Below the pieces are notes generated by a model. The model was given only the letters and a program-made list of their open reading frames with translations, did no database searches and was not told the origin of the DNA. Below are positions 7,051 through 50,380 of a stretch of 64,000 nucleotides of DNA, in pieces. Each line of letters begins with the position of its first letter. Position 1 is the stretch's first letter. Both the position numbers and the translations under genes were made by a program. Origin of the DNA: Pisolithus tinctorius (taxonomy: Eukaryota > Basidiomycota > Agaricomycetes > Boletales > Pisolithaceae); NCBI GenBank assembly GCA_024663395.1, contig JANFAH010000002.1, positions 4,774,001 to 4,838,000 of the forward strand, in the 5' to 3' direction.

Positions 7051-8866
7051 TGTGAGTCAAAGTGTGGAATGCTGGTATAAACCAAACAAATCCAACACCA
7101 AAGACAAATACAAGCAAGTGGTGGTTTACCTCCGCGGAACCTGGAGGGCAGAGAAACCTGATGTGGGGGGAGACTTCAAGTGGAGGTGCTCCTGGCGCAA
7201 GTCGTCGACGAGTTACACAGGAGAAGATGAATGGACGATGATTGGGAAGGGGATGCTGAACAGAGTGAAGGTGTTCAGCCGAAAGTACTTGGGGGTAATG
7301 GACTTTTGATAAAATATGCTCCTGGCGCAAGTCGATGACGAGTTACGCAGGAGTGGAAGAATGACTAGACAAGAGGTTGCTGACTAAGCACAGATGATAC
7401 AATGATATGAAGGAAGACAGATAGACTCTTCCGAATGAGCCTCAACTGTCGACGATGAGATATGCTGAGCTGAACTGACTTCTGAGTGACTTCTTGATTG
7501 CTTCTGAATTGATTGTGGGTAGCTAAGTACATGGGGGTTTATATACTGAGGGGGGGAGCACAGCTTGTGACAAACAAGGCACAAACACTTGGTAAGTAAT
7601 GAGTAAGGACTGGGTAATCATGATGAGTAAGCGAGAAATGAAAAGTAAGCAAGCAAAGAAGATTGGTAAGTATTGGCAATGAACAAGTCAAGGATAGTCA
7701 AAATATCACAAAATGAGTCAAACAGAATCAGAAACTGAGTAAGTGCACTGATATCACATTAGGGGGTGGCGATGCAAGTTAGTTCTTGGCGGAGACATCT
7801 CTAGACCCAAAGATGGCATGACAGATGGACGGTGTTTCCAGATAGGGAAGTATTAACTCCAGAATTGAAGGGCATGAGTCAGGTGTCAAAGGGGGCTAGG
7901 GCGTTGGGGGTCTGTGGGGCAATGAGAGCATACGCGATCGCATCTCCCACCCTTTCATCCTCTCAGCAAAGTTAACAAAAACTTCATGAACGGGGCTCTG
8001 ACGGAGGAGGAGGAGAAGGGGGGACGTCTTCTGCTGGATCTTGCAGTAAGAAGGCAAGATGCATGTCATACTTGTCATGAATGCGATCAGGGAGGCTGGA
8101 GGACAGTAGATTATACTGCAGCTGTCGCAATGCAGGAAGAATGATGGACGAGACTGGAATAAAGACAGTGCAGGGAGCAGGGAGAAATGATCCATATGCT
8201 TCATCAACCGGGGGGACTGAAATGACCACATAAGACCTTTCTAACCGAGTGACAGACCTGAGGCGACCAAAGAACATCCTTCTGGAAGTCATACTGACAA
8301 GGAGAACACGCTGACCAAGCTGCATGGGATGAGACGGGGCTGACAATGACGGGATGAACCAGGGGGCTTCAGGACGGAAGCTGGTGGGAACGCCTGGCAG
8401 ATATACGTAGCCACTGTCTCTGGCAAATGAGACAAGCGAGATGATTGATGAAGAGGTGGCCATGATTGATGGACCTTGCGAAATGAGTGTCTGATGGATG
8501 GAGTGCTGTAGAAATGCGCAGGGTGCGAGGATCCTCTCCAAATTTGGAAGGAAGAATCGTGGGGCTGAGCACTTTAAGCGAGCATGCGAACCGAGTTGAT
8601 ATCTTTGGAAACGGTGGAGATATGACAGAAACCGGAATGCCATACACGGGCACTAAAAACCTTTAATGCGCACTTAACTCGCTTCCTCTTTTCTCTTTAG
8701 CACTGACGACTTGTTCTTGTGCGAAGGATGACTGTTCACATCCAACAGTCTTTCTTCACATGAGGCCTTTAGTCTTCATCTGCATGCCTGGGCATTGTGC
8801 GCAACTCGTCAATGAGTTAGGCAGAGTCAGCTGTAACCATGTCCACAACACCTTTGGTGTGTGACA
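7051..8866 (-). mobile_element. Solo LTR of Gypsy family A, inverted, inside Copia
   Basis: The 1816-bp sequence is the reverse complement of the LTRs at 36054 and 45700, from TGTGAGTCAAAG at 7051 to GTGTGTGACA at 8866. Flanks are CCGC (7047-7050) and CTGC (8867-8870), a 4-bp duplication with one C-to-T change at a CpG. No internal sequence is present, so it arose by LTR-LTR recombination. It holds the conserved 159-codon ORF (7984-8463) and copies of the family palindrome near 7195, 7325 and 8799. Confidence 0.93.
7984..8463 (-). CDS. LTR-A ORF, 159 aa, unknown function (copy 1)
   Basis: ATG in context CAATCATGGCC, 480 bases including the stop, open throughout. Features shared by all copies are FARDSGYVYLPGVPTSF, a central run alternating hydrophobic and polar residues (LGQRVLLVSMTSRRTFFGRL) that could fold as a small beta-barrel, and a Pro-rich tail ending PPSPPPPSEPRS. 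I recognise no domain, signal peptide or membrane span. It lies upstream of the LTR's TATA box, so it would be in U3. Confidence 0.45.
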   Translation of the reverse strand: MATSSSIISLVSFARDSGYVYLPGVPTSFRPEAPWFIPSLSAPSHPMQLGQRVLLVSMTSRRMFFGRLRSVTRLERSYVVISVPPVDEAYGSFLPAPCTVFIPVSSIILPALRQLQYNLLSSSLPDRIHDKYDMHLAFLLQDPAEDVPPSPPPPSEPRS

Positions 8867-19894: not shown

Positions 19895-21757
19895 TGTCAC
19901 ACACCAAAGGTGTTGTGGACATGGTTACAGCTGACTCTGCCTAACTCATTGACGAGTTGTGCACAATGCCCAAGCATGCAGATGAAGACTAAAGGCCTCA
20001 TGCGTAGAAAGACTGTTGGACGTGAACAGTCATCCTTCGCACAAGATCGAGTCGTCAGTGCTAAAGAGAAAAGAGGAAGCGAGTTAAGCGCGCATTAAAG
20101 GTTTTTAGCACCCGTGTACAGCATTCCGGTTTCCGTCATATCTCTGCCGTTTCCAAAGATATCAACTCGGTTCGCATGCTCGCTTAAAGTGCTCAGCCCC
20201 ACGATTCTTCCTTCCAAATTTGGAGAGGATCCTCACACCCTGCATGTTTCTACAGCACTCCATCCATCAGACACTCATTTCGCAAAGTCCATCAATCATG
20301 GCCACCTCTTCGTCAGTCATCTCGCTTGTCTCGTTTGCCAGAGACAGTGGCTACATATATCTGCCAGGCGTTCCCACCAGCTTCTGTCCTGAAGCCCCCT
20401 GGTTCATCCCATCATTGTCAGCCCCGTCTCATCCCATGCAGCTTGGTCAGCGTGTTCTCCTTGTCAGTATGACTTCCAGAAGGACGTTCTTTGGTTGCCT
20501 CAGGTCTGTCACTCGGTTAGAAAGGTCTTATGTGGTCATTTCAGTCCCCCCGGTTGATGAAGCATATGGATCATTCCTCCCTGCTCCCTGCACCATCTTT
20601 GTTCCGGTCTCGTCCGTCATTCTTCCTGCATTGCGACAGCTGCAGTATAATCTACTGTCCTCCAGCCTCCCTGATCGCATTCATGACGAGTATGACATGC
20701 ATCTTGCCTTCTTACTGCAAGATCCAGCAGAAGACATCCCCCCTTCTCCTCCTCCTCCATCAGAGCCCCGTTCATGAAGTTTTTGTTAACTTCGCTGAGA
20801 GGATGGAAGGGTGGGAGACACGATTGCATGTGCTCTCATTGCCCCACAGACCCCCAATGCCCTAGCCCCCTTTGACACCTGACTCATGCCCTTCAATTCT
20901 GGAATTAATACTTCCCTATCTGGAAACACCATCCATCTGTCATGCCATCTTTGGATCTAGAGATGTCTCCGCCAAGATCTAACTTGCATCGCCACCCCCT
21001 AATGTGATATCAGTGCGCTTACTCAGTTTCTGATTCTATTTGACTCATTTTGTGATATTTTGACTATCCTTGACTCGTTCATTGCCAATACTTACCAATC
21101 CTCTTTGCTTGCTTACTTATCATTTCTCACTTACTCATCATGATTACTCAGTCCTTACTCATTACTTACCAAGTGTTTGTGCCTTGTTTGTCACAAGCTG
21201 TGCTTCCCCCATAGTATATAAACCCCCATGTACTTAGCTACAGAGAATCAATCAGGAAGCAATTCAGAAGTCATCCAGCAGTCAGTCCAGTGCCTATCTC
21301 GTCGTCGACAGTTGAGGCTCCACGAAGGGGTCTATCTGTCATCATTCATATACTTGGTAGTTGAGGCTCATTCGGAAGAGTCTATCTGCCTCCATCATTT
21401 CATCTGAAGCTTTATCCTCACACTTAGTCAGCAAGTTTGCTTAGTCACCCATCCACTCCTGCGTAACTCATCATCGACTTGCGCCAGGAGCATATTTTAT
21501 CAAAAGTCCATTACCCCCCAAGTACTTTCAGCTGAACACCTTCACTCTGTTCAGCATCCCCTTCCCAATCATTGTCCATTCGTCTTCTCCTGCGTAACTC
21601 ATCGACGACTTGCACCAGGAGCACCTCTACTTGAAGTCCCCCCCACATTTAGGTTTCCGCCCTCCAGGTTCCGCGGAGGCAAACCACCACTTGCTCTTAT
21701 TTGTCTTTTGTGTTGGATTTGTTTGGTTTTCACCAGCATTCCACACTTTGACTCACA
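19895..21757 (+). mobile_element. Solo LTR of Gypsy family A (1863 bp) inside LTR B
   Basis: TGTCACACACC to TTTGACTCACA, flanked by a GCGC duplication (19891-19894 and 21758-21761). It carries the 159-codon ORF, a TATATAA box near 21215, and family palindromes near 19937, 21468 and 21597. Confidence 0.93.
20298..20777 (+). CDS. LTR-A ORF, 159 aa, unknown function (copy 2)
   Basis: 480 bases, intact, the same start and stop context as the other copies. Hand comparison with the copy at 36457 gives about 14 synonymous and 15 amino-acid-changing differences and no indels, fewer replacements than expected for random drift. The count is approximate. Confidence 0.45.
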   Translation: MATSSSVISLVSFARDSGYIYLPGVPTSFCPEAPWFIPSLSAPSHPMQLGQRVLLVSMTSRRTFFGCLRSVTRLERSYVVISVPPVDEAYGSFLPAPCTIFVPVSSVILPALRQLQYNLLSSSLPDRIHDEYDMHLAFLLQDPAEDIPPSPPPPSEPRS

Positions 21758-33899: not shown

Positions 33900-35574
33900 T
33901 GTCACACACCAAAGGTGTTGTGGACATGGTTACAGCTGACTCTGCCTAACTCGTTGATGAGTTGCGCACAATGCCCAAGCATGCAGATGAAGACTAAAGG
34001 CCTCATGTGAAGAAAGACTGTTGGACGTGAACAGTCATCCTTCGCACAAGATCGAGTCGTCAGTGCTAAAGAGAAAAGAGGAAGCAAGTTAAGCGCACAT
34101 TAAAGGTTTTTAGCGCCCGTGTACGGCATTCCGGTTTCCGTCATATCTCTGCCGTTTCCAAAGATATCAACTCGGTTCGCATGCTCGCTTAAAGTGCTCA
34201 GCCCCACGATTCTTCCTTCCAAGTTTGGAGAGGATCCTCACACCCTGCGTGTTTCTACAGCACTCCATCCATCAGACGCTCATTTCGCAAGGTCCATCAA
34301 TCATGGCCACCTCTTCGTCAGTCGTCTCGCTTGTCTCATTTGCCAGAGACAGTGGCTACGTATATCTGCCAGGTGTTCCCACCAGCTTCCGTCCTGAAGC
34401 CCCCTGGTTCATCCCGTCATTGTCAGCCCCGTCTCATCCCATGCAGCTTGGTCAGTGTGTTCTCCTTGTCAGTATGACTTCCAGAAGGACGTTCTTTGGT
34501 CGCCTCAGGTCTGTCACTCGGTTAGAAAGGTCTTATGTGGTCGTTTCAGTCTCCCCAGTTGATGAAGCATATGGATCATTCCTCCCTGCTCCCTGCACCG
34601 TCTTTGTTCCAGTCTCGTCCGTCATTCTTCCCGCATTGTGACAGCTGCAGTATAATCTACTGTCCTCCAGCCTCCCTGATCGCATTCATGACGAGTATGA
34701 CATGCATCTTGCCTTCTTACTGCAAGATCCAGCAGAAGACGTCCCCCCTTCTCCTCCTCCTCCATCAGAGCCCCGTTCATGAAGTTTTTGTTAACTTTGC
34801 TGAGAGGATGGAAGGGTGGGAGATGCGATCACATATGCTCTCATTGCCCCACAGACCCCCAATGCCCTAGCCCCCTTTGACACCTGACTCATGCCCTTCA
34901 ATTCTGGAATTAATACTTCCTTGTCTGGAAACACTGTCCATCTGTCATGCCATCTTTGGATCTAGAGATGTCAGTTTCTGATTCTGATTGACTCATTTTG
35001 TGATATTTTGACTATCCTTGACTCGTTCATTGCCAATACTTACCAATCTTCTTTGCTTGCTTACTTTTCATTTCTCGCTTACTCATCATGATTACCCAGT
35101 CCTTACTCATTACTTACCAAGTGTTTGTGCCTTGTTTGTCACAAGCTGTGCTCCCCCCCTCAGTATATAAACCCCCATGTACTTAGCTACCCAGAATCAA
35201 TCAAGAAGCAATTCAGAAGCAGTCCAGCAATCAGTTCAGTGCCCATCTCGTCGTCAACAGTTGAGGCTCCACAAAGGGGTCTATCTGTCATCATTCATAT
35301 ACTTGGTAGTTGAGGCTCATTCGGAAGAGTCTATCTACCACCATTCATTATCTGAAGCTCCATCCACACTTAGTCAGCAAGTCTTGCTTAGTCATCCTCC
35401 CACTCCTGCATAACTTGTCATCGACTTGCGCCAGGAGCACCTCTACTTGAAGTTCCCCCCACATTTAGGTTTCTGCACTCCAGGTTCCGCGGAGGCACAC
35501 CACCACTCGCTCTACATTTGTCTTTTGTGTTGGTTTTGGTTGGTTTTCACCACCTTTCCACACTTTGACTCACA
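33900..35574 (+). mobile_element. Solo LTR of Gypsy family A (1675 bp), inside an intron
   Basis: TGTCACACACC to TTTGACTCACA with a CCGC duplication (33896-33899 and 35575-35578). It is shorter than other copies because of internal deletions, including one near 34970 between the GATGT and CAGTTTCTGATTC segments. It lies within an intron of the Cys-motif gene. Confidence 0.92.
34303..34782 (+). pseudogene. LTR-A ORF with a premature stop (copy 3)
   Basis: The same 480-base frame as the other copies, but a TGA at 34639-34641 replaces a CGA codon (LPALRQ in the other copies), cutting the protein to 112 residues. The remaining frame to 34782 is otherwise open. Confidence 0.6.
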
Positions 35575-36456
35575 CCGCACAGCGATCTCAACAGACAATC
35601 ACCAAGAGCAACAATGACAGGAAGCATAAGGTAACTGTCCCCCCAGGGCAGGTACTACATGCAGTACCCTGTGCACATTGCTCCATCAAGGGAATGCCAT
35701 GCTTCGGGCCGAGCAGCAAGACGTGCGATTGGTGCATGAAGATGAAGCAGGGCTGTGAGAAGTCCAACAAGGGGGTGGGAAAAAGGGTGCAGGCTGGCGC
35801 ATTGATTGGTAAGTGACAACTGCATTCCGATGTGCACAGGGTTGACAAGGTGCAGTGCACTCGACCAAGGCACCGAAGGCCAGCCCTTCCAAACGGGCCC
35901 TCAATGACGATGACGATGACGATGACATGGAGGTGGTCGAGACCCATGTGTGCGGCAAGGGTAAGGCACCAGTGTGTGGTGGGTTGGATGGCAAGACCAC
36001 CTCAGATATCTTGCAAGCCCTTGGGATGGTCAGGGCTGAGGCCATGGCTGCGCTGTCACACACCAAAGGTGTTGTGGACATGGTTACAGCTGACTCTGCC
36101 TAACTCGTTGACGAGTTGCGCACAATGCCCAAGCATGCAGATGAAGACTAAAGGCCTCATGCGTAGAAAGACTGTTGGACGTGAACAGTCATCCTTCGCA
36201 CAAGATCGAGTCGTCAGTGCTAAAGAGAAAAGAGCAAGCGAGTTAAGCGCGCATTAAAGGTTTTTAGCGCCCGTGTACGGCATTCCGGTTTCTGTCATAT
36301 CTCCGCCGTTTCCAAAGATATCAACTCGGTTCGCATGCTCGCTTAAAGTGCTCAGCCCCACGATTCTTCCTTCCAAATTTGGAGAGGATCCTCGCACCCT
36401 GCACGTTTCTACAGCACTCCATCCATCAGATGCTCATTTCGCTAAGTCCATCAATC

Positions 36457-36936
36457 ATGGCGGCCTCTTCGTCAATCATCTCACTTGTCTCATTTGCCAG
36501 AGACAATGGCTACGTATATCTGCCAGGTGTTCCCACCAGCTTCCGTCCTGAAGCCCCCTGGTTCATCCCGTCGTTGTCAGCCCCATCCCATCCCATGCAG
36601 CTTGGTCAGCGTGTTCTCCTTGTCAGTATGACTTCCAGAAGGACATTCTTTGGTCGCCTCAGGTCTGTCACTCGGTTAGAAAGGTCTTATGTGGTTGTTT
36701 CAGTCTCCCCTCTTGATGAAGCATATGGATCGTTCCTCCCTGCTCCCTGCACCGTCTTTATTCCAATCTCGTCCATCATTCTTCCCGCATTGCGACAGCT
36801 GCAGTATAATCTACTGTCCTCCAGCCTCCCTGATCGCATTCATGATGAGTATGACATGCATCTTGCCTTCTTACTGCAAGATCCAGCAGAAGACGTTCCC
36901 CCTTCTCCTCCTCCTCCATCAGAGCCCCGTTCATGA
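36457..36936 (+). CDS. LTR-A ORF, 159 aa, unknown function (copy 4, 5' LTR)
   Basis: Intact, MAASSSIISLVSFARD to PPSEPRS. A second, 111-codon ATG frame (36689-37024) overlaps it and is also open in all copies; the longer frame has the better start context and the more protein-like composition. Whether it is translated is unknown. Confidence 0.45.
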   Translation: MAASSSIISLVSFARDNGYVYLPGVPTSFRPEAPWFIPSLSAPSHPMQLGQRVLLVSMTSRRTFFGRLRSVTRLERSYVVVSVSPLDEAYGSFLPAPCTVFIPISSIILPALRQLQYNLLSSSLPDRIHDEYDMHLAFLLQDPAEDVPPSPPPPSEPRS

Positions 36937-37373
36937 AGTTTTTGTTAACTTCGCTGAGAGGATGGAAGGGTGGGAGACGCGATCGCATATGCTCTCATTG
37001 CCCCACAGACCCCCAATGCCCTAGCCCCCTTTGACGCCTGACTCATGCCCTTCAATTCTGGAATTAATACTTCTCTATCTGGAAACACCGTCCATCTGTC
37101 ATGCCATCTTTGGATCTAGAGATGTCTCCGCCGAGATCTGACTTGCATCGCCACCCCCTAATGTGATATCAGTGTGCTTACTCAGTTTCTGACTCTATTT
37201 GACTCATTCTGTGATATTTTGACTATCCTTGACTCGTTCATTGCCAATACTTACCAATCCTCTTTGCTTGCTTACTTATCATTTCTCACTTACTCATCAT
37301 GATTACTCAGTCCTTACTCATTACTTACCAAGTGTTTGTGCCTTGTTTGTCACAAGCTGTGCTTCCCCCATAG

Positions 37374-37380
37374 TATATAA
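37374..37380 (+). promoter_or_regulatory. TATA box of Gypsy A LTR
   Basis: TATATAA in the context CCCCCATAGTATATAAACCCCC, kept in the other LTR copies (for example at 47020). It would mark the U3/R boundary and start the genomic RNA about 25-30 bases downstream. Confidence 0.7.
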
Positions 37381-37909
37381 ACCCCCATGTACTTAGCTAC
37401 AAAAAAATCAATCAATCAAGAATCAATTCAGAAGCAGTCCAGCAGTCAGTCCAGTGCCTATCTCGTTGTCGACAGTTGAGGCTCCACGAAGGGGTCTATC
37501 TGTCATCATTTGTATACTTGGTAGTTGAGGCTCATTTGGAAGAGTCTACCTGCCTCCATTATTCATCTGAAGCTTCCTCTTAGTCAGCAGTCTTTGTCAT
37601 CCCTCCACTCCTGCGTAACTCGTCATCGACTTGCGCCAAGAGCACATCTTATTAAAGTCCATCATCTCAAGTCCTTTCAGCTGAACACCTTCGCTCTGTT
37701 CAGCATCCCCCATCCAATCATCACTTGCTTGTCTTCTCCTGCGTAACTCGTCGTCGACTTGCGCTAGGAGCACCTGCCATTGAAACTCCCCCCACATTTA
37801 GGTTTCTGCACTCCAGGTTCCGCGGAGGCACACCACCACTCGCTTTACATTTGTCTTTTGTGTTGGTTTTGGTTGGTTTTCACCACCTTTCCACACTTTG
37901 ACTCTCATC

Positions 37910-37926
37910 TGGAGCCCACCGCGAGG
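37910..37926 (+). promoter_or_regulatory. Gypsy A primer-binding site
   Basis: TGGAGCCCACCGCGAGG begins two bases after the LTR end. The leading TGG pairs with a tRNA CCA end, so this is a conventional 3'-end tRNA primer site, unlike the Copia element. I cannot name the tRNA. Confidence 0.65.
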
Positions 37927-38008
37927 GGTGGTTATTCCTGGATCAAGAACCCTGTTCACTCAGCCTGTTGAAACTTGTCTCTAAAACACCACTTGATATC
38001 TCATTACT

Positions 38009-41000
38009 ATGTCATCCACCATCCCCACTATCTATCCTCCTACATCATCAGCAGTTCCAGTAGCTATGGCTGCTCCCCCTGCTCGCTCTGTCCTCACTAT
38101 GCCCTTGCTTGGCATGAAGTCTGCCCCTGAATTATTCCAAGGAGACCATACCCATGTTCGCTCCTTCTTGGACCACTATGAACGTCTCTGTGCCTACCAC
38201 AATGTCACTTCTGACCAGGAAATGGTCGAGTCAATCCTCCAGTACTGCAATGCTCGTGTTAGGGAGATTATTGAAGGAATGGCTCACTACTACACTCCTG
38301 ATTGGGCTAACTTGAAGGCTGATCTCCTCAAGTACTTTGATGCTGATCTATCAGATGAAAGGTTCTTTGAAAGGCATCTCAAGAGCTTTGCTTTGGAGTC
38401 TAGGATGCAGCCCATTATGACTCTTCAAGACTTTAGGGCTTACAACCGTGGCTTCATTCGCATTGGAGGTTGGTTGAAGAATAAAGGAAGGATATCGGTT
38501 GACGAATATAATCGCTACTTCTGGGCTGGTTTGTCCCCAGTCTTTCGTGGCTTGGTTGAAACTCGTCTCAGGACAAAGGATCCCAACCTTGACATTAGCA
38601 GGCCATTCCCCTATGATGATGTATGCCAGTCAGCTGAAGAGGTCCTTCGCCGTGATCGCTTTGATGCAGATGACCTTGACTTCCTTGGCCCTCGTGCTGC
38701 CCCTGCTCCTCAGGCCCAGCCTAATGCTTCTCATCGCTCAGATGGAAGAGATGACAGTGTTCGCCCTCTGCTTCCTTCCCATGAAGCCAGAAGAAACCTT
38801 GAAAATTTGGAGAAAGAAGGCCCTACTGCTTGTAAGCAAGATGAAGTTGAGACCCTAATCAAGTCTCTCTCTCGCATGTCACTCAATGACCCAGACTACT
38901 CCCTCCTTTACTATCGTGCTATCAAGATGGATCCTGATGCTGCAAAGGTGCTTCGTGCTCCTTCCCTTCGTCCTGCTCCTGCATCTACTCCTGCATCCAC
39001 TGCCCCTGCTGCTACTTCCTCATCCCAGACCCGTCCTGCTAGGAGGACCATCACTTGTTATGGTTGTGGTGTTGAAGGCCATGGTGTTGAGAGTTGCCAA
39101 GCCGTTAATGATCTCATTCAGAAGGGTTCTTTGGCACGTGATGAAAACCATCGGGTCATCTACCCTAATGGACAGCGCATTTATCGCAATGGAGAAGAGA
39201 CTATCCTGCAAGCTTATGAGCGCACTAAAGCTGCTGCTCAGCCTGCCAATGCAGTCTGCTTTGTTATCCATGAAGAGGCTGAAGAAGAGTCTAGTGCTGA
39301 GATCTATGAGTTGGAAGAAGAACCCCTTGTTGCTGCTGTGGATCGTTCTAACAAGGTTACCAAAGAGAAGAGAAAGGCTGTCTTTGACAGTGTCCTAGTC
39401 CCACCTCGTTCGCATGGCAAGGAGAAAGAGACTCAAGAACCAAAGCCCTCATCCTCTGCATCTATCCCTGCTCCACAGAAAGCACCACTTGCTCCAGCCT
39501 TCGTGCCAGTAGATGTCCATCCCACTGTCTTTGATGGAACTAGAGATGATGCTATCATGGAAGATGCCACTGTCCCAAAGCCATCTGGTCAAGCCACTGA
39601 TTCTGCAGACAGGTCTAAGAAATCCAAGCTCCCTCCTACCACTTCCCTGTCTTCATCGCTTTCTCAGTCTGCCAATTCTAAAGCCATTGTAGAGCACATT
39701 CTTTCTACTCCCTTGACTGTATCTGTTGGGGAGGTCATTGGATCATCTAGGGATGTTTCTCAGCATCTTCAGGAGCTTATGCGATTCAAGAGACAGCCCC
39801 TGGCTCAGCCTGTCAAGTCTGTTACTGCAGTTGAAGGAACTCCTCCTGCATCCTCCTACTTGGCACTGACATCCAGTCCCCTCATCACTATCAATCTGAC
39901 TTGCAATGGTCGTCGTGTAACAGGTGTCATTGACTCTGGATCTACCCTCAATGTTGTTCGTGCTGGTATAGCCCAGTCAGTCATTCGCATGCCCATCGAT
40001 ATGTCACAGACCATCAATATGCGAGATGCAAAAGGAGGTATCTCTACTCTGAAAGGTCTGGTACAGGATGTCCCTCTCTTCTGTGGTGCTGCCAGGACTT
40101 GGACCAATCTATTCGTCGCCCCAGACACTAATGCAGGCTTTGATCTCCTCCTTGGTCGTCCTTGGGCCCTTGGGAACTCGGTTAGCATTGTTGAAAGAGA
40201 GTCTGGAACTTATGTTGTCTTTGGAGCTGATTCAGATCGCCCCCTGGAGATGTGTGTTACTGAAGGCCAGCTTGGGTCTGTTGCAGATACCCTTATGGCG
40301 ACTCTAGAGCCTGTCCATTCTCAGCAAGAAGCCGATGAACCTATGAGAGATGTAGCAGTTGGTACCCCTCATCATGTTTCACCCATCATCTTTGCTCCAC
40401 CCCCATCAACTTCACAGTCACCCCCTCAGTCACTTGATTCTACTCTGCTGTATCCTGAATCACCCCCAGATGGGTTTCATGTTGCCTCAGCCTTTCCTGT
40501 GTTCCATCCCATTCCAGTCCAAGCATTCCCACCTCCTACCAGTCCCTTTCCTTCGGAGTTTGTTGGTCAGCTTACCCAGGAGTTACAGTCCACTGATACA
40601 AGTGGATTGGAGGATAATCCTACCCTTGCCCAGATTTGTCGCCAGATCAGAAGAGAAGAGCGCCAGTCACTTGTCTCACTTCTTACTAGCCTTGCTCATC
40701 GCACTCCCCATCTATCCTCCCTTTATCTCGACTCAAACCATGCACTTGCTGGAGAAAGAGGTACTGATGAATCAGGAGTCTACTTCCAAGACTTCCTTAT
40801 GCTTGATACTCACTTGGTCCGACAGGTTCCTGCCCCACTAGAGCATTACCATGAGCTTGAAGGTTCTGCCTATGTCAGATTCTATCCTCGTCTACTCCCA
40901 CAGGCATCTCCCACTCAGAGCAATGCATCTCCACCTCCAGACCTGCCATCTAACTCAGGTCTACCTGCTTCACATGTACTTTCTAATGGCATTACTGCTC

Positions 41001-41950
41001 CGCCTCAGACTCCCTCTCCCCCATCCCCAGATCCAGTTATCGTTCAAGAGGAGCCCACCAATGGTTCCCACCAGGCTTCACTTCTGTTCTGTAGAGACAC
41101 TGTCACTCCAGACTCTGAAGCTACATTCTCCATCTTCAATACTTCCTACTGCGGTTCAGTTGCCCCTACTTCCCATGATGCTTGCCATGACTCTCAGTCT
41201 GCACAACTCGACGACGAGTTGTGCAGGGATCCATATGCACCCAGTCCATCCACCCATCATCAGTCTGCGCAACTCGACGACGACTTGTGCAGCCATGTGC
41301 AGTTGCCTGGTTCATCCTCAGATATAGGTCATGACTCTCAGTCCACACAACTCGTTGACGAGTTGCGCGTGTCCCACCACTTGTTCAGTCTATCCCCAGA
41401 TATACCCACCACACTTTCGCCACTTGACTCTGATATGTTCAACACTAGTGTTGGCTCTCGCTTCTATCTGCCTAGCCCATCCTTGCCTCAGTCTGCACAA
41501 CTCGACGACGACTTATGCAGGCATCAGCAGTCCTCTAGTCCAACTCTTCCTATGCCATTACTACCCTCAGCTCCCCAAGCCATGTCTAATGCTGCTGTTG
41601 GTGAAGAGTCAGTTGCCATGCCAGAGCCTTACAACAATGTTGTCATGTGTCGTACCCCTACTGGATGGATTGCTCATTTGCAGGAAGCTGCAGAGGACCA
41701 TTCAGGTGATGTGGATGAAGAGGACACAGGTGCATTCCCAAACTCCAATCTTCATGTCCTTGCCAGTGCAGTCAGTTTTGCCTCAGCCTCAGCTCATCCT
41801 CCCCCTTTTGAAGCAGTCTCATACCCAGACCACTTTCCTGCTTCTGCTTCCTCAGATTCAACTCAAGACAGGTCCGATGATCTTTTCAGATGTGTTCCTC
41901 CACTTTCTCCCATATCTCATCATTTATTTCTCCAGCTCTTTGAAGATTGA
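38009..41950 (+). CDS. Gypsy A Gag-protease protein, 1313 aa, long C-terminal extension
   Basis: ATG 38009 in a suitable context. Gag lies in residues 30-260 (FLDHYERLCAYHNVTSD, RVREIIEGMAHYYTPDW). A CX2CX4HX4C zinc knuckle (CYGCGVEGHGVESC) is at about residue 350. The protease motif VIDSGSTLNVV is at about residue 640. After the protease come roughly 550 further residues, rich in Pro, Ser, Gln and Asp, that do not resemble a known domain and contain four copies of a peptide of the type SAQLDDDLCRH, all encoded by the family palindrome. The ORF is uninterrupted. Pol lies downstream in another frame. Confidence 0.93.
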   Translation: MSSTIPTIYPPTSSAVPVAMAAPPARSVLTMPLLGMKSAPELFQGDHTHVRSFLDHYERLCAYHNVTSDQEMVESILQYCNARVREIIEGMAHYYTPDWANLKADLLKYFDADLSDERFFERHLKSFALESRMQPIMTLQDFRAYNRGFIRIGGWLKNKGRISVDEYNRYFWAGLSPVFRGLVETRLRTKDPNLDISRPFPYDDVCQSAEEVLRRDRFDADDLDFLGPRAAPAPQAQPNASHRSDGRDDSVRPLLPSHEARRNLENLEKEGPTACKQDEVETLIKSLSRMSLNDPDYSLLYYRAIKMDPDAAKVLRAPSLRPAPASTPASTAPAATSSSQTRPARRTITCYGCGVEGHGVESCQAVNDLIQKGSLARDENHRVIYPNGQRIYRNGEETILQAYERTKAAAQPANAVCFVIHEEAEEESSAEIYELEEEPLVAAVDRSNKVTKEKRKAVFDSVLVPPRSHGKEKETQEPKPSSSASIPAPQKAPLAPAFVPVDVHPTVFDGTRDDAIMEDATVPKPSGQATDSADRSKKSKLPPTTSLSSSLSQSANSKAIVEHILSTPLTVSVGEVIGSSRDVSQHLQELMRFKRQPLAQPVKSVTAVEGTPPASSYLALTSSPLITINLTCNGRRVTGVIDSGSTLNVVRAGIAQSVIRMPIDMSQTINMRDAKGGISTLKGLVQDVPLFCGAARTWTNLFVAPDTNAGFDLLLGRPWALGNSVSIVERESGTYVVFGADSDRPLEMCVTEGQLGSVADTLMATLEPVHSQQEADEPMRDVAVGTPHHVSPIIFAPPPSTSQSPPQSLDSTLLYPESPPDGFHVASAFPVFHPIPVQAFPPPTSPFPSEFVGQLTQELQSTDTSGLEDNPTLAQICRQIRREERQSLVSLLTSLAHRTPHLSSLYLDSNHALAGERGTDESGVYFQDFLMLDTHLVRQVPAPLEHYHELEGSAYVRFYPRLLPQASPTQSNASPPPDLPSNSGLPASHVLSNGITAPPQTPSPPSPDPVIVQEEPTNGSHQASLLFCRDTVTPDSEATFSIFNTSYCGSVAPTSHDACHDSQSAQLDDELCRDPYAPSPSTHHQSAQLDDDLCSHVQLPGSSSDIGHDSQSTQLVDELRVSHHLFSLSPDIPTTLSPLDSDMFNTSVGSRFYLPSPSLPQSAQLDDDLCRHQQSSSPTLPMPLLPSAPQAMSNAAVGEESVAMPEPYNNVVMCRTPTGWIAHLQEAAEDHSGDVDEEDTGAFPNSNLHVLASAVSFASASAHPPPFEAVSYPDHFPASASSDSTQDRSDDLFRCVPPLSPISHHLFLQLFED
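41199..41520 (+). repeat. Four palindromes of the family A type in gag-pro
   Basis: Copies at 41199-41226, 41265-41292, 41344-41370 and 41493-41520 have the form CTGCACAACTCG + ACGA + CGAGTTGTGCAG, the first nearly perfect. The same palindrome occurs three times per LTR and once in pol (44077-44100). Confidence 0.88.
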
Positions 41951-42266
41951 TTCGTATGTCCCCTCTTGTACTTATAGTTGTTCTTGTTCTTCGTCTGCTC
42001 ACTTTGACCGAGAAGTCGTTAAACTCCTAAACCCACAGATATCGTTTCTTTGCTCAGATACTCCTGTAACATCACTTACTATGACTCCTTCAGTTTCAAG
42101 CTTCCAGAGCTCCTTTTATCTTGATGTCTTCTCTTCTTCGTTATCTAATCCTTCAAAAGCACCAGATCCCCTTCTTATTCAGAAAACTGAAAAACGGCTT
42201 CATTTTTACTATTCTCTGTCTGACTTTCTTGGTTTGTTACGTTTTAGAAAAAGCCTTGCTACAGAT

Positions 42267-45200
42267 ATGGAAGACTCAGCCGATGAAACAGGACAGCCGG
42301 TGTATGGAGCATACAAGCGTGTTGATCGTAAAGTCAAGCCCGTGCCTGGAGTCTATCCAGAGGATGCTCGGGTCCATCGTCAGTTTCCAGAAGACCCCCT
42401 CGCATCACTCACACCTCTCACATGTCACCCTCCTGTGTTCGTTCCCACAAGGAAGCTTACTCAAGAGCGCCTTACCTCCATGGAGATTAACGCTGATGGC
42501 TTTCTCTGGCCAGAAGAGGAAAAACTTTTTTCGCATGTCATGAAGCTTAATGAGCATGCCTTGGCGTTTGATGAATCGGAGAGAGGAAACTTCCGTTCGG
42601 ACTATTTTTCGCCTTACATCATTCCTGTCCTGCCACACGAACCATGGGAGTTTCGTAACATTCCAATTCCCCCTGGCATACGAGAACGTGTCATACAGCT
42701 TCTTCGGGAGAAGATCGCCGCTGGTCTCTATGAGCCAGCCCAATCATCCTATCGCTCCAAATGGTTCTGTGTTATGAAAAAGAATGGCAAGATCCGCATC
42801 GTTCATGATCTACAGCCTCTGAATAAGGTTACAATTCGAGACGCTGGTGTTCCACCAATATTGGATGACTTTGTGGAGCCATTTGCCGGTCGTCAATGCT
42901 ACACGGTCTTTGATCTATTTTCAGGATTTGATGCACGCCAGCTCCACCCCGATAGCCGAGATCTGACATCCTTCATGACGCCTCTTGGCTTACTGCGCCA
43001 TACTGCCATGCCTCAAGGCTACACCAACTCGCCATCGGAGTTTCAGAATTGTACAGCGTTTATTCTACAGGATGAAATCCCTCACATTGCCAACATTTTC
43101 ATTGACGATCTACCAGTCAAAGGCCCTGCAACCCGTTATGAAGATACCGATGGCAATGCCGAAACATTACCCGAGAATCCCGGCATACGTCGCTTCATTT
43201 GGGAACATGCTGTAGACGTGCATAGAGTCATGCATCGGTTTGCTCATGCCGGCGGAACGTTTTCTGGCTTGAAATCTCAGATCTGCCAGCCTCGCGTTAT
43301 CATTCTTGGTCAAGCATGCCATCCTCATGGTCGCTCTCCTGACGACCACAAGGTGGAGAAGGTCGTCAACTGGCCAACGCTCGCTACGCCCAAAGATGTT
43401 CGCTCATTCCTAGGTCTCTGTGGTACTGTTCGTATCTGGATTGCGAACTACTCGCAGTTGGCTCGCCCACTCGTTGACCTCTATCGCAAGAATGCTCCGT
43501 TCATTTGGGGTCAGCCCCAGCAAGATGCGTTTGATGCCTTGAAGCTCGCCGTCTCGTCTGCTCCTGCCCTTCGCCCCATTGACTACTCATCTGACCTGCC
43601 AGTCGTTCTTTCCGTTGACACTAGTAACATCGCCATTGGATTCGTTCTCTCTCAGTATGATGAAGAAGGTCGTAAACGTCCTGCTCGCTATGGTTCACTC
43701 CCCATCAATGAACGTGAATCTCGCTACAGTCAGCCTAAGCTCGAGCTCTATGGTCTCTTCAGAGCGCTTCGTCACTACCATCTATATCTCTACGGCGTTC
43801 GTCATCTATGGGTAGAGGTTGATGCGAAGTACATCAAAGGTATGCTCAATGATCCAGATCTTCAACCTAACGCTACTGTCAATCGCTGGATCGAGGGTAT
43901 ACTTCTCTTTGACTTTAAGCTCATTCATGTCCCTGCTGTTCGTCACCGAGCCCCAGATGCCCTTTCCAGACGTCAACCTACAGAAGAGGAGTATGAAGAA
44001 GGCGAAGCTGATGCAGAAGAAGCTGATGAGTGGTTGGAGAATATTCTTTTTACAGATGCCCATCCGTCTTCAGTCAGCGCAACTCGTCAACGACTTGCGC
44101 ACGAATCCACATATGCCATTACCCTCCCATCATTCCTTTCCAATGATACATCTCAAGATGTCCTCTTACGTCGGGTCCTGCACTTCCTTCGTACTACAGA
44201 ACTTCCCCCGTTCCCTTCCAATACTGCTCGCAAGCGCTTCATTCACAGATCCCTTCAGTTCTTCCTTCGTGGAGACCAGCTCTTTAAACGTCGAGGTCCT
44301 CATCCTCCAGCCAAGGTCGTCTTTGATCCCCATCTCCGTGTCCAGATCCTCAGTCACGCTCATGAAGAACTCGGTCATTGTGGAGTCTTTGGAGTCTTTC
44401 ATACGGTCAGACAGCGCTTTTACTGGCCTCGGATGTACCAAGACGTCGCCCATCATGTCTGCTCTTGCCATGAATGCCAGGTCCGAAGCACTCGTAAAGC
44501 AGAGGTTCCCATCACCATTTCCGCTTCCCCCAGAATCTTTATGAAGGTCTACGTCGATGTCATGCTCATGCCCAAAGCACGTGGTTATCGCTATCTTGTC
44601 GCAGCTCGAGATGATCTTTCTCTCGCTGCAGAAGGTCATGCTCTTCGTCATGCCAATGCAGACAGTCTCACTAAGTTCTTCTGGGAAGAAGTCTTCTGTC
44701 GTTATGGTGCTATTGCCCAGGTTGTCACTGATAATGGCAGTGAGGTCAAGGGCGCCTTTGAGAAACTCATGAAGCATTACTCCATTCCCCAGATTCGTAT
44801 CTCCCCATATAATTCCAAGGCAAATGGAGTTGTAGAACGCGGTCACTTTGTTATCAGAGAAGCTATCATCAAAGCTTGTGAAGGAGATCTTTCGCTCTGG
44901 CCGTCCAAGGTCCATCATGCATTCTTCGCAGACAAGGTCACTACTCGTCGCTCCACTGGATTCAGCCCCTACTTCCTGCTACATGGTCTTGATCCTGTCC
45001 TGCCTTTTGATCTCTTCGAGTCTACCTATCTCGTTGAAGGATTCTACTCTGGAGTGACGTCTCAAGAGCTTCTCGCACTTCGCATTCGTCAGTTGGAAAG
45101 GAGAGAAGAAGATATCGATGCCGCTTTCGCTACATTGCAGAAGTCTCGTTTACGCTCCAAGGGTCAGTTTGAGAAGAGGTATGCTTTACGGTTGATGAAG

Positions 45201-45572
45201 TCAGCTTATGAGCCAGGAGATTTGGTATTGGTTCGCAACACGCAGATAGAGAAAGAACTGGATCGCAAATCAAAGCCACGCTACCTTGGTCCCTATGAAG
45301 TTGTTCGTTGCACCAAGGGAGGCTCCTACGTCCTTAAAGAACTTGATGGCACCATTTCTGCTCGAGGTGTTGCAGCGTTTCGACTCATTCCTTACTATTC
45401 TCGCCACACTCCCTTACCCAGTGTTATGGAAGAAGAAAGAGATGAAGAAGAAGAAAATAACAGCAGTAACAACAATGACAACGACAACGACAATGATGAA
45501 GAAGATGAAACAGATGATGAAAACAGAGAAACCAATAACAATATCGACTACGACTCAGATGACTATTCATGA
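42267..45572 (+). CDS. Gypsy A Pol: reverse transcriptase, RNase H, integrase
   Basis: The frame is open from 41331, but it shadows gag-pro until 41950; the first plausible in-frame ATG after that is 42267 (MEDSADETGQPVYGAY). RT spans about 42730-43150 with IVHDLQPLNKVTI and the catalytic FIDD at 43098-43109. RNase H contains VVLSVDTSNIAIGFVLSQ near 43605. Integrase has the His/His/Cys/Cys zinc site (HEELGHCG, CSCHECQ) and D, D, E at about 44556, 44730 and 44835 with 34 residues between the second D and E. The GPY/F-type module reads KPRYLGPYEVVRC near 45270. The C-terminus is a Glu/Asp/Asn-rich tail. No stop or frameshift is seen, so the copy may be active. Expression would need a +1 frameshift in the 41331-41950 overlap or reinitiation. 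Confidence 0.94.
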   Translation: MEDSADETGQPVYGAYKRVDRKVKPVPGVYPEDARVHRQFPEDPLASLTPLTCHPPVFVPTRKLTQERLTSMEINADGFLWPEEEKLFSHVMKLNEHALAFDESERGNFRSDYFSPYIIPVLPHEPWEFRNIPIPPGIRERVIQLLREKIAAGLYEPAQSSYRSKWFCVMKKNGKIRIVHDLQPLNKVTIRDAGVPPILDDFVEPFAGRQCYTVFDLFSGFDARQLHPDSRDLTSFMTPLGLLRHTAMPQGYTNSPSEFQNCTAFILQDEIPHIANIFIDDLPVKGPATRYEDTDGNAETLPENPGIRRFIWEHAVDVHRVMHRFAHAGGTFSGLKSQICQPRVIILGQACHPHGRSPDDHKVEKVVNWPTLATPKDVRSFLGLCGTVRIWIANYSQLARPLVDLYRKNAPFIWGQPQQDAFDALKLAVSSAPALRPIDYSSDLPVVLSVDTSNIAIGFVLSQYDEEGRKRPARYGSLPINERESRYSQPKLELYGLFRALRHYHLYLYGVRHLWVEVDAKYIKGMLNDPDLQPNATVNRWIEGILLFDFKLIHVPAVRHRAPDALSRRQPTEEEYEEGEADAEEADEWLENILFTDAHPSSVSATRQRLAHESTYAITLPSFLSNDTSQDVLLRRVLHFLRTTELPPFPSNTARKRFIHRSLQFFLRGDQLFKRRGPHPPAKVVFDPHLRVQILSHAHEELGHCGVFGVFHTVRQRFYWPRMYQDVAHHVCSCHECQVRSTRKAEVPITISASPRIFMKVYVDVMLMPKARGYRYLVAARDDLSLAAEGHALRHANADSLTKFFWEEVFCRYGAIAQVVTDNGSEVKGAFEKLMKHYSIPQIRISPYNSKANGVVERGHFVIREAIIKACEGDLSLWPSKVHHAFFADKVTTRRSTGFSPYFLLHGLDPVLPFDLFESTYLVEGFYSGVTSQELLALRIRQLERREEDIDAAFATLQKSRLRSKGQFEKRYALRLMKSAYEPGDLVLVRNTQIEKELDRKSKPRYLGPYEVVRCTKGGSYVLKELDGTISARGVAAFRLIPYYSRHTPLPSVMEEERDEEEENNSSNNNDNDNDNDEEDETDDENRETNNNIDYDSDDYS
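44077..44100 (+). repeat. Family A palindrome within pol
   Basis: GCGCAACTCGTCAACGACTT + GCGC. It is read here as SATRQRLAH, a different frame from that used in gag-pro. Confidence 0.85.
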
Positions 45573-45699
45573 TTTCCCTTTTTTCATTTCTTACGATACT
45601 GATTGCCTGTCATTCCTTCCTTCATTTTTCTTTTTGTTTTCCCTGGGTTCCCTGCATTGGTCGCAATCGGGGACGATTGCATTTCTTCTTGCCGGTGGA

Positions 45700-47553
45700 T
45701 GTCACACACCAAAGGTGTTGTGGACATGGTTACAGCTGACTCTGCCTAACTCGTTGACGAGTTGCGCACAATGCCCAAGCATGCAGATGAAGACTAAAGG
45801 CCTCATGCGTAGAAAGACTGTTGGACGTGAACAGTCATCCTTCACACAAGATCGAGTCGTCAGTGCTAAAGAGAAAAGAGCAAGCGAGTTAAGCGCGCAT
45901 TAAAGGTTTTTAGCGCCCGTGTACGGCATTCCGGTTTCTGTCATATCTCCGCCGTTTCCAAAGATATCAACTCGGTTCGCATGCTCGCTTAAAGTGCTCA
46001 GCCCCACGATTCTTCCTTCCAAATTTGGAGAGGATCCTCGCACCCTGCACGTTTCTACAGCACTCCATCCATCAGACGCTCATTTCGCTAAGTCCATCAA
46101 TCATGGCGGCCTCTTCGTCAATCATCTCGCTTGTCTCATTTGCCAGAGACAATGGCTACGTATATCTGCCAGGTGTTCCCACCAGCTTCCGTCCTGAAGC
46201 CCCCTGGTTCATCCCGTCGTTGTCAGCCCCATCCCATCCCATGCAGCTTGGTCAGCGTGTTCTCCTTGTCAGTATGACTTCCAGAAGGACATTCTTTGGT
46301 CGCCTCAGGTCTGTCACTCGGTTAGAAAGGTCTTATGTGGTTGTTTCAGTCTCCCCTCTTGATGAAGCATATGGATCGTTCCTCCCTGCTCCCTGCACCG
46401 TCTTTATTCCAATCTCGTCCATCATTCTTCCCGCATTGCGACAGCTGCAGTATAATCTACTGTCCTCCAGCCTCCCTGATCGCATTCATGATGAGTATGA
46501 CATGCATCTTGCCTTCTTACTGCAAGATCCAGCAGAAGACGTTCCCCCTTCTCCTCCTCCTCCATCAGAGCCCCGTTCATGAAGTTTTTGTTAACTTCGC
46601 TGAGAGGATGGAAGGGTGGGAGACGCGATCGCATATGCTCTCATTGCCCCACAGACCCCCAATGCCCTAGCCCCCTTTGACGCCTGACTCATGCCCTTCA
46701 ATTCTGGAATTAATACTTCTCTATCTGGAAACACCGTCCATCTGTCATGCCATCTTTGGATCTAGAGATGTCTCCGCCGAGATCTGACTTGCATCGCCAC
46801 CCCCTAATGTGATATCAGTGTGCTTACTCAGTTTCTGACTCTATTTGACTCATTCTGTGATATTTTGACTATCCTTGACTCGTTCATTGCCAATACTTAC
46901 CAATCCTCTTTGCTTGCTTACTTATCATTTCTCACTTACTCATCATGATTACTCAGTCCTTACTCATTACTTACCAAGTGTTTGTGCCTTGTTTGTCACA
47001 AGCTGTGCTTCCCCCATAGTATATAAACCCCCATGTACTTAGCTACAAAAAAATCAATCAATCAAGAATCAATTCAGAAGCAGTCCAGCAGTCAGTCCAG
47101 TGCCTATCTCGTTGTCGACAGTTGAGGCTCCACGAAGGGGTCTATCTGTCATCATTTGTATACTTGGTAGTTGAGGCTCATTTGGAAGAGTCTACCTGCC
47201 TCCATTATTCATCTGAAGCTTCCTCTTAGTCAGCAGTCTTTGTCATCCCTCCACTCCTGCGTAACTCGTCATCGACTTGCGCCAAGAGCACATCTTATTA
47301 AAGTCCATCATCTCAAGTCCTTTCAGCTGAACACCTTCGCTCTGTTCAGCATCCCCCATCCAATCATCACTTGCTTGTCTTCTCCTGCGTAACTCGTCGT
47401 CGACTTGCGCTAGGAGCACCTGCCATTGAAACTCCCCCCACATTTAGGTTTCTGCACTCCAGGTTCCGCGGAGGCACACCACCACTCGCTTTACATTTGT
47501 CTTTTGTGTTGGTTTTGGTTGGTTTTCACCACCTTTCCACACTTTGACTCTCA
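45700..47553 (+). repeat. Gypsy A 3' LTR (1854 bp)
   Basis: Same length as the 5' LTR and almost identical. It is followed by the GCGC duplication and by the resumed reading frame of the interrupted Cys-motif gene. The sequence just upstream (GCCGGTGGA) is a poor polypurine tract. Confidence 0.95.
46103..46582 (+). CDS. LTR-A ORF, 159 aa, unknown function (copy 5, 3' LTR)
   Basis: Intact and apparently identical in protein sequence to the 5' LTR copy. In the 3' LTR the ORF lies in transcribed U3, inside the 3' part of full-length RNA, which is where it could be expressed, for example from a spliced or internal transcript. Confidence 0.45.
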   Translation: MAASSSIISLVSFARDNGYVYLPGVPTSFRPEAPWFIPSLSAPSHPMQLGQRVLLVSMTSRRTFFGRLRSVTRLERSYVVVSVSPLDEAYGSFLPAPCTVFIPISSIILPALRQLQYNLLSSSLPDRIHDEYDMHLAFLLQDPAEDVPPSPPPPSEPRS

Positions 47554-47634
47554 GCGCATGCAGCCAACCTTCACCTTCAAGTCCGCATCGAGCAGCTGTT
47601 GGAGGCCCTGGCGAAACTGGGAGTAGAGTAGATG

Positions 47635-48564: not shown

Positions 48565-50380
48565 TGTCACACACCAAAGGTGTTGTGGACATGGTTACAG
48601 CTGACTCTGCCTAACTCGTTGATGAGTTGCGCACAATGCCCATGCATGCAGATGAAGACTAAAGGCCTCATGCGTAGAAAGACTGTTGGACGTTAACAGT
48701 CATCCTTCGCACAAGAATGAGTCGTCAGTGCTAAAGAGAAAAGAGGAAGCGAGTTAAGCGCGCATTAAAGGTTTTTAGTGCCCATGTACGGCATTCCAGT
48801 TTTCATCGTATCTCCACCATTTCCAAAGATATCGACTCCATTCCCATGCTCGCTTAAAGTGCTCAGCCCCATGATTCTTCCTTCCAAATTTGGAGAGGAT
48901 CCTCGCACCCTGCACGTTTCTACAGCACTCCATCCATCAGACGCTCATTTCACAAAGTCCATCAATCATGGCCACCTCTTCATCAATCATCTCACTTGTC
49001 TCATTTGCCAGAGACAGTGGCTACGTATATCTGCCAGGCGTTCCCACCAGCTTCCATCCTGAAGCCCCCTGGTTCGTCCTGTCATTGTCAGCCCCGTCTC
49101 ATCCCATGCAGCTTGGTCAGCGTGTTCTCCTTGTCAGTATGACTTCCAGAAGGACATTCTTTGGTCGCCTCAGGTCTGTCACTCGGTTAGAAAGGTCTTA
49201 TGTGGTCATTTCAGTCCCCCCAGTTGATGAAGCATATGGATCATTTCTCCCTGCTCCCTGCACCGTCTTTATTCCAGTCTCATCCGTCATTCTTCCTGCA
49301 TTGCGACAGCTGCAGTATAATCTACTGTCCTCCAGCCTCCCTGATCGCATTCATGACGAGTATGACATGCATCTTGCCTTCTTACTGCAAGATCCAGCAG
49401 AAGACGTCCCCCCTTCTCCTCCTCCTCTGTCAGAGCCCCGTTCATGAAGTTTTTGTTAACTTCACTGAGAGGATGAAAGGGTGGGAGACGCGATTGCGTA
49501 TGCTCTCATTGCCCCACAGACCCCCAACACCCTAGCCCCCTTTGACACCTGACTCATGCCCTTCAATTCTGGAGTTAATACTTCCCTATCTGGAAACACC
49601 GTCCATCTGTCATGCCATCTTTGGGTCTAGAGATGTCTCCACCGAGATCTAACTTGCATCGCCACCCCCTAATGTGATATCAGTGCGCTTACTCAGTTTC
49701 TGATTCTGTTTGACTCATTTTGTGATATTTTGACTATCCTTGACTTGTTCATTGCCAATACTTACCAATCTTCTTTGCTTGCTTACTTTTCATTTCTCGC
49801 TTACTCATCATGATTACCCAGTCCTTACTCATTACTTACCAAGTGTTTGTGCCTTGTTTGTCACAAGCTGTGCTCCCCCCCTCAGTATATAAACCCCCAT
49901 GTACTTAGCTACCCACAATCAATTCAGAAGCAATCAAGAAGTCACTCAGAAGTCAGTTCAGCTCAGCATATCTCATCGTCGACAGTTGAGGCTCATTCGG
50001 AAGAGTCTATCTGTCTTCCTTCATATCATTGTATCATCTGTGCTTAGTCAGCAACCTCTTGTCTAGTCATTCTTCCACTCCTGCGTAACTCGTCATCGAC
50101 TTGTGCCAGGAGCATATTTTATCAAAAGTCCATTACCCCCAAGTACTTTCGGCTGAACACCTTCACTCTGTTCAGCATCCCCTTCCCAATCATCGTCCAT
50201 TCATCTTCTCCTGTGTAACTCGTCGACGACTTGTGCCAGGAGCACCTCCACTTGAAGTCTCCCCCCACATCAGGTTTCTCTGCCCTCCAGGTTCCATGGA
50301 GGTAAACCACCACTCGCTTGTATTTGTCTTTGGTGTTGGATTTGTTTGGTTTATACCAGCATTCCACACTTTGACTCACA
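48565..50380 (+). mobile_element. Solo LTR of Gypsy family A (1816 bp) in Gypsy C
   Basis: TGTCACACACC to TTTGACTCACA with GCGG duplications (48561-48564 and 50381-50384). Removing it with one GCGG restores the minus-strand frame of the Gypsy C tail (E-E-L-D-R-L-L). Palindromes lie near 48612, 50086 and 50212. Confidence 0.93.
48968..49447 (+). CDS. LTR-A ORF, 159 aa, unknown function (copy 6)
   Basis: Intact 480-base frame with the same start context and stop. Differences from the other copies are substitutions only. Confidence 0.45.
   Translation: MATSSSIISLVSFARDSGYVYLPGVPTSFHPEAPWFVLSLSAPSHPMQLGQRVLLVSMTSRRTFFGRLRSVTRLERSYVVISVPPVDEAYGSFLPAPCTVFIPVSSVILPALRQLQYNLLSSSLPDRIHDEYDMHLAFLLQDPAEDVPPSPPPLSEPRS

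What the first reader, a model, noticed from the sequence alone, without database searches (positions are those of the whole stretch)
36457..36936. A 159-codon ORF inside the LTR of Gypsy family A, same length in all six copies
Six independent LTR copies (7984-8463 minus, 20298-20777, 34303-34782, 36457-36936, 46103-46582, 48968-49447) carry an ATG frame of exactly 480 bases with the same start context and stop. Five are open; the sixth has one CGA-to-TGA change. Whole LTRs vary from 1675 to 1863 bp through indels, yet none falls in this frame. A hand count between two copies gives about 14 synonymous and 15 replacement differences, suggesting purifying selection. The ORF lies in U3, upstream of the TATA box. 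LTR-encoded proteins are rare (the known example is a mammalian retrovirus U3 gene), and I know of none in fungal Gypsy elements. Caveat: a second overlapping frame of 111 codons is also open in all copies.
Basis: partly seen in the sequence, partly recalled or inferred. Interest (0 to 1): 0.88.

Follow-up and report, generated by a model that had tools for sequence, protein, structure and literature searches.

The report
Protein gene inside retrotransposon LTR
Copies of a very common jumping gene in a soil fungus carry, inside their end repeats, a small extra gene whose protein sequence has been preserved by selection almost as strongly as the element's own enzymes, which is unusual because such repeats are normally thought not to code for protein.

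Summary
Observation confirmed: all six LTR copies carry the 480-base frame; five are open, one has TGA at codon 113. The genome (very probably Pisolithus tinctorius) has 1108 exact family-A LTR 5' ends.

Within family A the first 1200 bp of the LTR are nearly indel-free, and standing copies decay about neutrally: codon 113 reads CGA 399, TGA 163, CAA 145 times.

A stronger test supports it. A diverged subfamily (B) has the same 159-codon frame. Between A and B, dN/dS is 0.19-0.23 for the frame (dS 0.45-0.48) and 0.125-0.138 for pol and gag; the other forward frames are at or above 1. The third-position excess is confined to the stretch between the ATG and the stop. Gene models with 67-79% identity come from P. 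orientalis and P. albus. AlphaFold gives a small beta-barrel with helices; no confident fold match.

Best reading: a U3-encoded accessory protein kept by selection on the element; nucleic-acid or chromatin binding is a guess. Expression was not testable; every literature call failed.

Also seen: the family integrates almost only at CpG (29 of 30 matching target duplications are NCGN).

The parts
36457..36936 (+). LTR-encoded ORF (159 codons + TGA) in the 5' LTR of the full-length element
   Evidence: open in translation; A-B dN/dS 0.19-0.23; third-position excess confined to it
46103..46582 (+). same ORF in the 3' LTR of the same element, one synonymous difference from the 5' copy
7984..8463 (-). 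same ORF, open, in LTR 7051-8866
20298..20777 (+). same ORF, open, in LTR 19895-21757
34303..34782 (+). same ORF, with TGA at codon 113, in LTR 33900-35574
48968..49447 (+). same ORF, open, in LTR 48565-50380
36054..37907 (+). 5' LTR, TG...CA, 1854 bp
   Evidence: junctions read
45700..47553 (+). 3' LTR, 99.84% identical to the 5' LTR
36050..36053 (.). target-site duplication GCGC, left
47554..47557 (.). target-site duplication GCGC, right
37374..37380 (+). TATA box (TATATAA), 3' of the ORF; taken as the promoter of the genomic RNA
   Evidence: role inferred
37908..37926 (+). putative primer-binding site directly after the 5' LTR
   Evidence: sequence; the LTR-leader junction occurs 82 times in the genome with up to 3 mismatches; role inferred
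38009..41950 (+). gag-protease ORF (DUF4100; aspartyl protease matches below the curated cut-off)
41331..45572 (+). pol ORF: RT, RNase H, integrase in Ty3/Gypsy order
36689..37024 (+). overlapping +1 frame of 111 codons; open but without sign of selection

Best explanation
The frame is a real protein gene that belongs to the retrotransposon and lies in U3 of both LTRs. Selection has preserved the protein in the lineages that kept transposing; each inserted copy then decays about neutrally, mainly by CpG mutation. SHOWN here: the frame, its location, its presence in two subfamilies and in gene models from two other Pisolithus species, and protein-level constraint between the subfamilies that is confined to the stretch between the ATG and the stop and comes close to that of pol. 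PREDICTED: a small five-stranded beta-barrel (residues about 20-103) behind an N-terminal helix, with an arginine-rich hairpin (7 R, 1 E in residues 51-76), C-terminal helices and a proline-rich acidic tail. INFERRED: (i) it is translated either from a transcript that starts in the 5' part of U3, or from a spliced or subgenomic RNA of the 3' LTR; in the first case (about 0.4) every LTR, solo LTRs included, could be a small expression unit ending at the LTR's own poly(A) site; (ii) it acts in trans for the element as a nucleic-acid- or chromatin-binding accessory factor in transcription, RNA handling or target choice (about 0.35). The confidence below is for the first two sentences, not for (i) or (ii).
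For: A versus B in the same elements: LTR ORF dN/dS 0.188-0.229, pol C-terminal part 0.125-0.136, gag N-terminal part 0.125-0.138; dS of the LTR ORF (0.45-0.48) equals that of pol (0.45-0.49) (six A-B pairs for the ORF, three each for pol and gag). With 41 A and 26 B rows (39 and 23 distinct ORFs) uncorrected pN/pS is 0.29 in frame, 1.09 and 1.70 in the other forward frames. Fixed A-B differences on third/first/second positions: ORF 33/12/9, 5' flank 12/18/15, 3' flank 24/19/28, p 0.0007. Leaving out all CpG columns, N/S of fixed differences is 0.87 against 2.59 expected, p 0.0003. Between one A and one B copy no indel in the frame, but 8 in the compared flanks (82-403 and 884-1226); with 7 of them the chance of none in the frame is 0.006. 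44 of 74 differences between two copies are at third positions; 0 of 5000 random placements (CpG not modelled) reach that. Proteins of 67-79% identity from P. orientalis, P. albus and a metagenome keep the core. The ATG has a purine at -3 and G at +4 in 41 of 41 A and 26 of 26 B rows. AlphaFold models from the window protein and the P. albus protein give the same order of elements, pLDDT by blocks 79-91 and 74-87 over residues 11-100 (the two alignments share members).
Confidence: 0.85

Rival explanations
1. The region is conserved as DNA or RNA (promoter, enhancer or packaging signal) and the open frame is a by-product.
For: The 5' part of U3 is also nearly free of indels within family A and has conserved blocks between A and B; random sequences of this composition hold a frame this long in 34 of 1000 cases; within family A one reverse frame looks as constrained as the ORF.
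Against: Between A and B differences pile up on third codon positions only between the ATG and the stop, not in either flank; the non-CpG test agrees; the dN/dS approaches that of pol.
Confidence: 0.04
2. Host domestication: some LTR copies have become a host gene and selection on them explains the conservation.
For: Gene models of the frame exist in three Pisolithus species; far more LTR ends (1295) than LTR-leader junctions (82), so most copies seem to be solo LTRs.
Against: The constraint is seen between element subfamilies with the same dS as pol; standing copies change codon 113 to a stop as often as to CAA; copies are numerous and dispersed over many contigs.
Confidence: 0.04
3. Relic: the protein mattered in the ancestor and for some time in both subfamilies, but present elements no longer need it.
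For: Weak constraint within family A; the TGA form is frequent.
Against: Within-A N/S is still below the neutral expectation (p 0.012). Of 20 LTR 5' ends taken in list order without regard to the frame, 14 of the 17 that reach it are open and the 3 broken ones share one CpG-derived stop; but these have an exact LTR start and lean towards recent copies. The window's own young element is open in both LTRs.
Confidence: 0.07
4. On expression (not exclusive with the best explanation): the protein is made only from the 3' LTR, as the last cistron of a spliced or subgenomic RNA, like retroviral nef or sag, and solo LTRs are silent.
For: The frame lies 3' of pol in the genomic RNA; a pyrimidine-rich TTTCTACAG lies just before the ORF in both subfamilies, one of six acceptor-like sites in that stretch.
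Against: No consensus donor in 37381-38300; no RNA data either way.
Confidence: 0.4

Closest known systems
Mouse mammary tumour virus U3 ORF (sag) (recalled)
   Same: A protein frame inside U3 of the LTR, present in both LTRs, upstream of the genomic promoter.
   Different: Here a fungal Ty3/Gypsy element; no Pfam family matches the window protein at E <= 1; a predicted small barrel. An immune target of the sag kind is not expected in a fungus (inference).
Lentiviral nef and spumaviral bel frames reaching into the 3' LTR (recalled)
   Same: Accessory protein frames in the U3 region of retroelements.
   Different: Those start upstream of the LTR; this one lies wholly inside the LTR.
Additional ORFs of plant Ty3/Gypsy elements such as Tat/Ogre/Retand (recalled; a review could not be opened)
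   Same: Extra protein-coding frames in Gypsy elements, mostly of unknown function.
   Different: As I recall them, those lie in the internal region, not in the LTR.
SH3-like / Tudor small barrels and ribosomal TL5/L25 barrels

Membership tests
Ty3/Gypsy LTR retrotransposon | RT, RNase H, then integrase in pol | tested here: met
   Pfam order in ORF 41331-45572
Ty3/Gypsy LTR retrotransposon | Direct LTRs with TG...CA ends and a short target-site duplication | tested here: met
Ty3/Gypsy LTR retrotransposon | tRNA primer-binding site next to the 5' LTR | tested here: inconclusive
   Recurrent leader junction TGGAGCCCACC; no tRNA was matched to it
U3-encoded accessory protein (as in MMTV sag) | Protein-coding frame wholly inside U3, under protein-level selection | tested here: met
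MMTV superantigen family | Sequence homology to a described family | tested here: not met
   No Pfam family at E <= 1 for the window protein; across 8 members at E <= 10 only p12I, in 3 members, best E 0.0078. No direct alignment with Sag was made
SH3-like / Tudor barrel | Five-stranded small barrel with a significant fold match | tested here: inconclusive
   Weak matches only
Translated gene | mRNA or peptide | not testable with these tools
   No expression data held

The most novel reading that the evidence does not exclude
A Ty3/Gypsy lineage has moved a required gene into its LTR as a complete unit (5' U3 promoter, ORF, the LTR's own poly(A) site), so that the many solo LTRs left by recombination remain sources of the protein in trans; and this barrel protein is part of the machinery that sends integration almost exclusively to CpG sites.
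Probability: 0.12. Interest if true: 0.9.

Novelty: new variant of a known kind. Interest (0 to 1): 0.7.

Why it matters
A protein gene inside an LTR has unusual consequences. It is duplicated at every insertion, survives as a solo LTR after the rest of the element is gone, and could in principle act in trans from hundreds of loci. If confirmed by expression data, this would extend U3-encoded proteins from retroviruses to a fungal Gypsy element and raise the question whether LTRs annotated as non-coding hide such genes elsewhere. Codon-position tests between diverged LTR subfamilies, as used here, are a general way to find them.

Tried and rejected
Indel-based evidence within family A was rejected as non-specific. 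N/S within family A has little power: a reverse frame gives the same value. Private against shared variants gave no significant difference; an earlier private/shared count for subfamily B was discarded because two of its rows (L048, L055) were A-like. Three rows (L014, L048, L055) were dropped from the A-B alignment as misplaced; the first fixed-difference count with them in is void (apart from its list of indels between two copies), and the A x B mean (dN/dS 0.24) still held them, so repeats it without them. The 111-codon overlapping frame was rejected (A-B pN/pS 0.91 inside and 0.90 beyond the ORF). A Pfam match to HTLV p12I in 3 of 8 members (best E 0.0078) was taken as chance. Origin from gag or pol: BLASTP best E 1.5; a profile comparison in the same script ended in an error. 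Rfam at gathering thresholds: nothing in 36000-38000. A profile search of solved structures gave only E 0.37. Searching the genome with P0008 gave best hits of about 67-73% identity; their loci could not be cut, so whether any is a third subfamily is open. The second model was given only to the VIA-align look, not to a Foldseek search of its own.

Deeper protein searches with an alignment or with P0006 could not be made. All eight paper searches failed, opening one review by DOI failed and one search was malformed, so nothing about the literature was checked; all comparisons with known systems are recalled.

Full report
What is there. The window lies on contig C2 of a 92.5-Mb genome. Contig C3 of that genome has exactly the length (4449062) of a contig reported for a Pisolithus tinctorius protein, so the host is very probably P. 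tinctorius (Boletales). A full-length Ty3/Gypsy element spans 36054-47553: LTR 36054-37907, gag-protease ORF 38009-41950 (DUF4100), pol ORF 41331-45572 (RT, RNase H, integrase), LTR 45700-47553, flanked by GCGC duplications. Its LTRs are 99.84% identical. Four further LTRs lie at 7051-8866 (minus), 19895-21757, 33900-35574 and 48565-50380.

The observation. All six LTRs hold the 159-codon frame at the stated coordinates; the copy at 34303 has TGA at codon 113. In the element at 36054 the frame starts at LTR position 404, in U3, upstream of the only TATAWA site in the LTR. Family-A LTR 5' ends occur 1295 times in the genome with up to 3 mismatches and 1108 times exactly. LTR-leader junctions, which mark elements with an internal region and include subfamily B, occur 82 times with up to 3 mismatches, so most LTRs seem to be solo, though diverged junctions would be missed.

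Among 43 distinct family-A LTRs, 67 distinct indel events were counted: 0 in the frame, 1 before it, 3 between its end and position 1200, 63 beyond. The indel-free zone is therefore wider than the frame. Of 20 LTR 5' ends taken in list order, 17 reach the frame; 14 of the 17 are open and the other 3 all have TGA at codon 113. These were exact matches to the LTR start and so lean towards recent copies. Codon 113 is the only CGA in the frame of the reference copy. Genome-wide, with exact flanks, it reads CGA 399, TGA 163 and CAA 145 times. TGA and CAA arise from the same CpG by mutation on either strand, and their similar numbers (p 0.33) suggest that inserted copies decay without selection against the stop. 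This is what is expected of a gene that serves the element and not the host.

The decisive comparison. A second subfamily, B, was found by searching with the P. albus protein. It has the same start, stop and length, about 82% protein identity to the window protein, and its own gag and pol ends. Between A and B the LTR frame has dN/dS 0.188-0.229 at dS 0.45-0.48; the C-terminal part of pol gives 0.125-0.136 at dS 0.45-0.49 and the N-terminal part of gag 0.125-0.138 at dS 0.60-0.64. With 41 A and 26 B rows, after dropping three misplaced rows, pN/pS is 0.29 in frame and 1.09 and 1.70 in the other forward frames; on the reverse strand it is 1.13, 0.41 and 1.29. The reverse frame with 0.41 shares its third positions with the ORF and is broken by stops (longest run 50 codons in the A reference and 79 in one B copy), so I read it as a mirror of the same signal. 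Fixed differences fall 33/12/9 on third, first and second positions in the frame, but 12/18/15 and 24/19/28 in the 5' and 3' flanks (p 0.0007). CpG mutates very fast here, so the test was repeated without any CpG column: N/S 0.87 against 2.59 expected, p 0.0003. Between one A and one B copy there is no indel in the frame and 8 in the compared flanks; with 7 of them the chance of none in the frame is 0.006. Absence of stops alone would be unremarkable: P 0.12 in the neutral simulation. The limits of the signal fit this ATG and this stop; the upstream flank shows no codon pattern. The pattern is weaker after codon 113, where fixed differences fall 7/5/5.

Within family A the signal is weaker still: N/S 60/47 against 2.12 expected (p 0.012), dN/dS about 0.39 against 0.18-0.24 for pol between the window element and three other A elements, omega 0.55 over the whole A+B tree, no significant difference between private and shared variants, and the mirror frame on the reverse strand gives the same ratio as the ORF (0.39 against 0.40). 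Mixed young, decaying copies would give this, but so would a recent loss of need.

Relatives. The protein search found 9 relatives at E <= 0.01 among 176 candidates: seven named from P. orientalis, P. tinctorius and P. albus and two from unnamed metagenome contigs. All are called hypothetical proteins. Two P. tinctorius models lack an 18-residue stretch that is well conserved in the full-length ones, presumably a falsely predicted intron. No named relative lies outside Pisolithus, but a more sensitive search could not be run.

Expression. In genomic RNA the frame would be the last one, beyond pol. No GTRNGY donor occurs in 37381-38300; a pyrimidine-rich TTTCTACAG, one of six acceptor-like sites, precedes the ORF in both subfamilies. 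The ATG has a purine at -3 and G at +4 in 41 of 41 A rows and 26 of 26 B rows. I cannot decide between a U3-internal promoter and a subgenomic RNA.

A second result. Of 69 LTRs with distinct flanks and recognised ends, 55 had both flanks held: 30 have identical 4-bp duplications, 5 are 5' LTRs and 7 are 3' LTRs of full elements, and 13 have unequal flanks, each with CG on at least one side. Of the 30, 29 have CG in the middle, where 2.7% is expected. Genome-wide, 391 of 1108 exact LTR starts are preceded by CGN and 1038 of 1108 by a pyrimidine-purine pair, that is CG or the mutation products CA, TG and TA; 3' LTRs, preceded by GGA, may account for most of the remaining 70. Pyrimidine-purine pairs are common by chance, so the 29 of 30 and the 391 of 1108 carry the argument. 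The family therefore seems to integrate almost only at CpG. Nothing links this to the LTR protein except that both belong to the same element.

Verdict. It is a U3-encoded accessory protein gene of a fungal Ty3/Gypsy family, a new variant of a known kind as far as I can recall; the literature could not be consulted.

Noticed in passing
36050-36053 and 47554-47557, and LTR flanks in L011-L068: The family's identical 4-bp target-site duplications are NCGN in 29 of 30 insertions; genome-wide 391 of 1108 exact LTR starts are preceded by CGN and 1038 by CG or a CpG mutation product. Near-absolute CpG integration specificity, which I cannot recall for any LTR element.
   Followed up: yes
LTR flank columns of family A: Very strong CpG decay: about 0.95 transitions per CpG C or G column against 0.14 and 0.11 at other C and G columns, which suggests cytosine methylation of these repeats.
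   Followed up: partly
50397-54640: Remains of a different Gypsy element on the minus strand (integrase zinc-binding and protease matches, an RT match below the curated cut-off) directly beside the LTR 48565-50380.
   Followed up: no
3909-5184: Copia-type gag and pol fragments (Retrotran_gag_2, Pol_BBD).
   Followed up: no
10815-12023: Plavaka transposase match on the minus strand.
   Followed up: no
16729-17761; 57956-58575; 59770-60251 and 61869-62320: Minisatellite arrays with 45-, 78- and 65-bp units; the two 65-bp arrays are inverted copies of each other.
   Followed up: no
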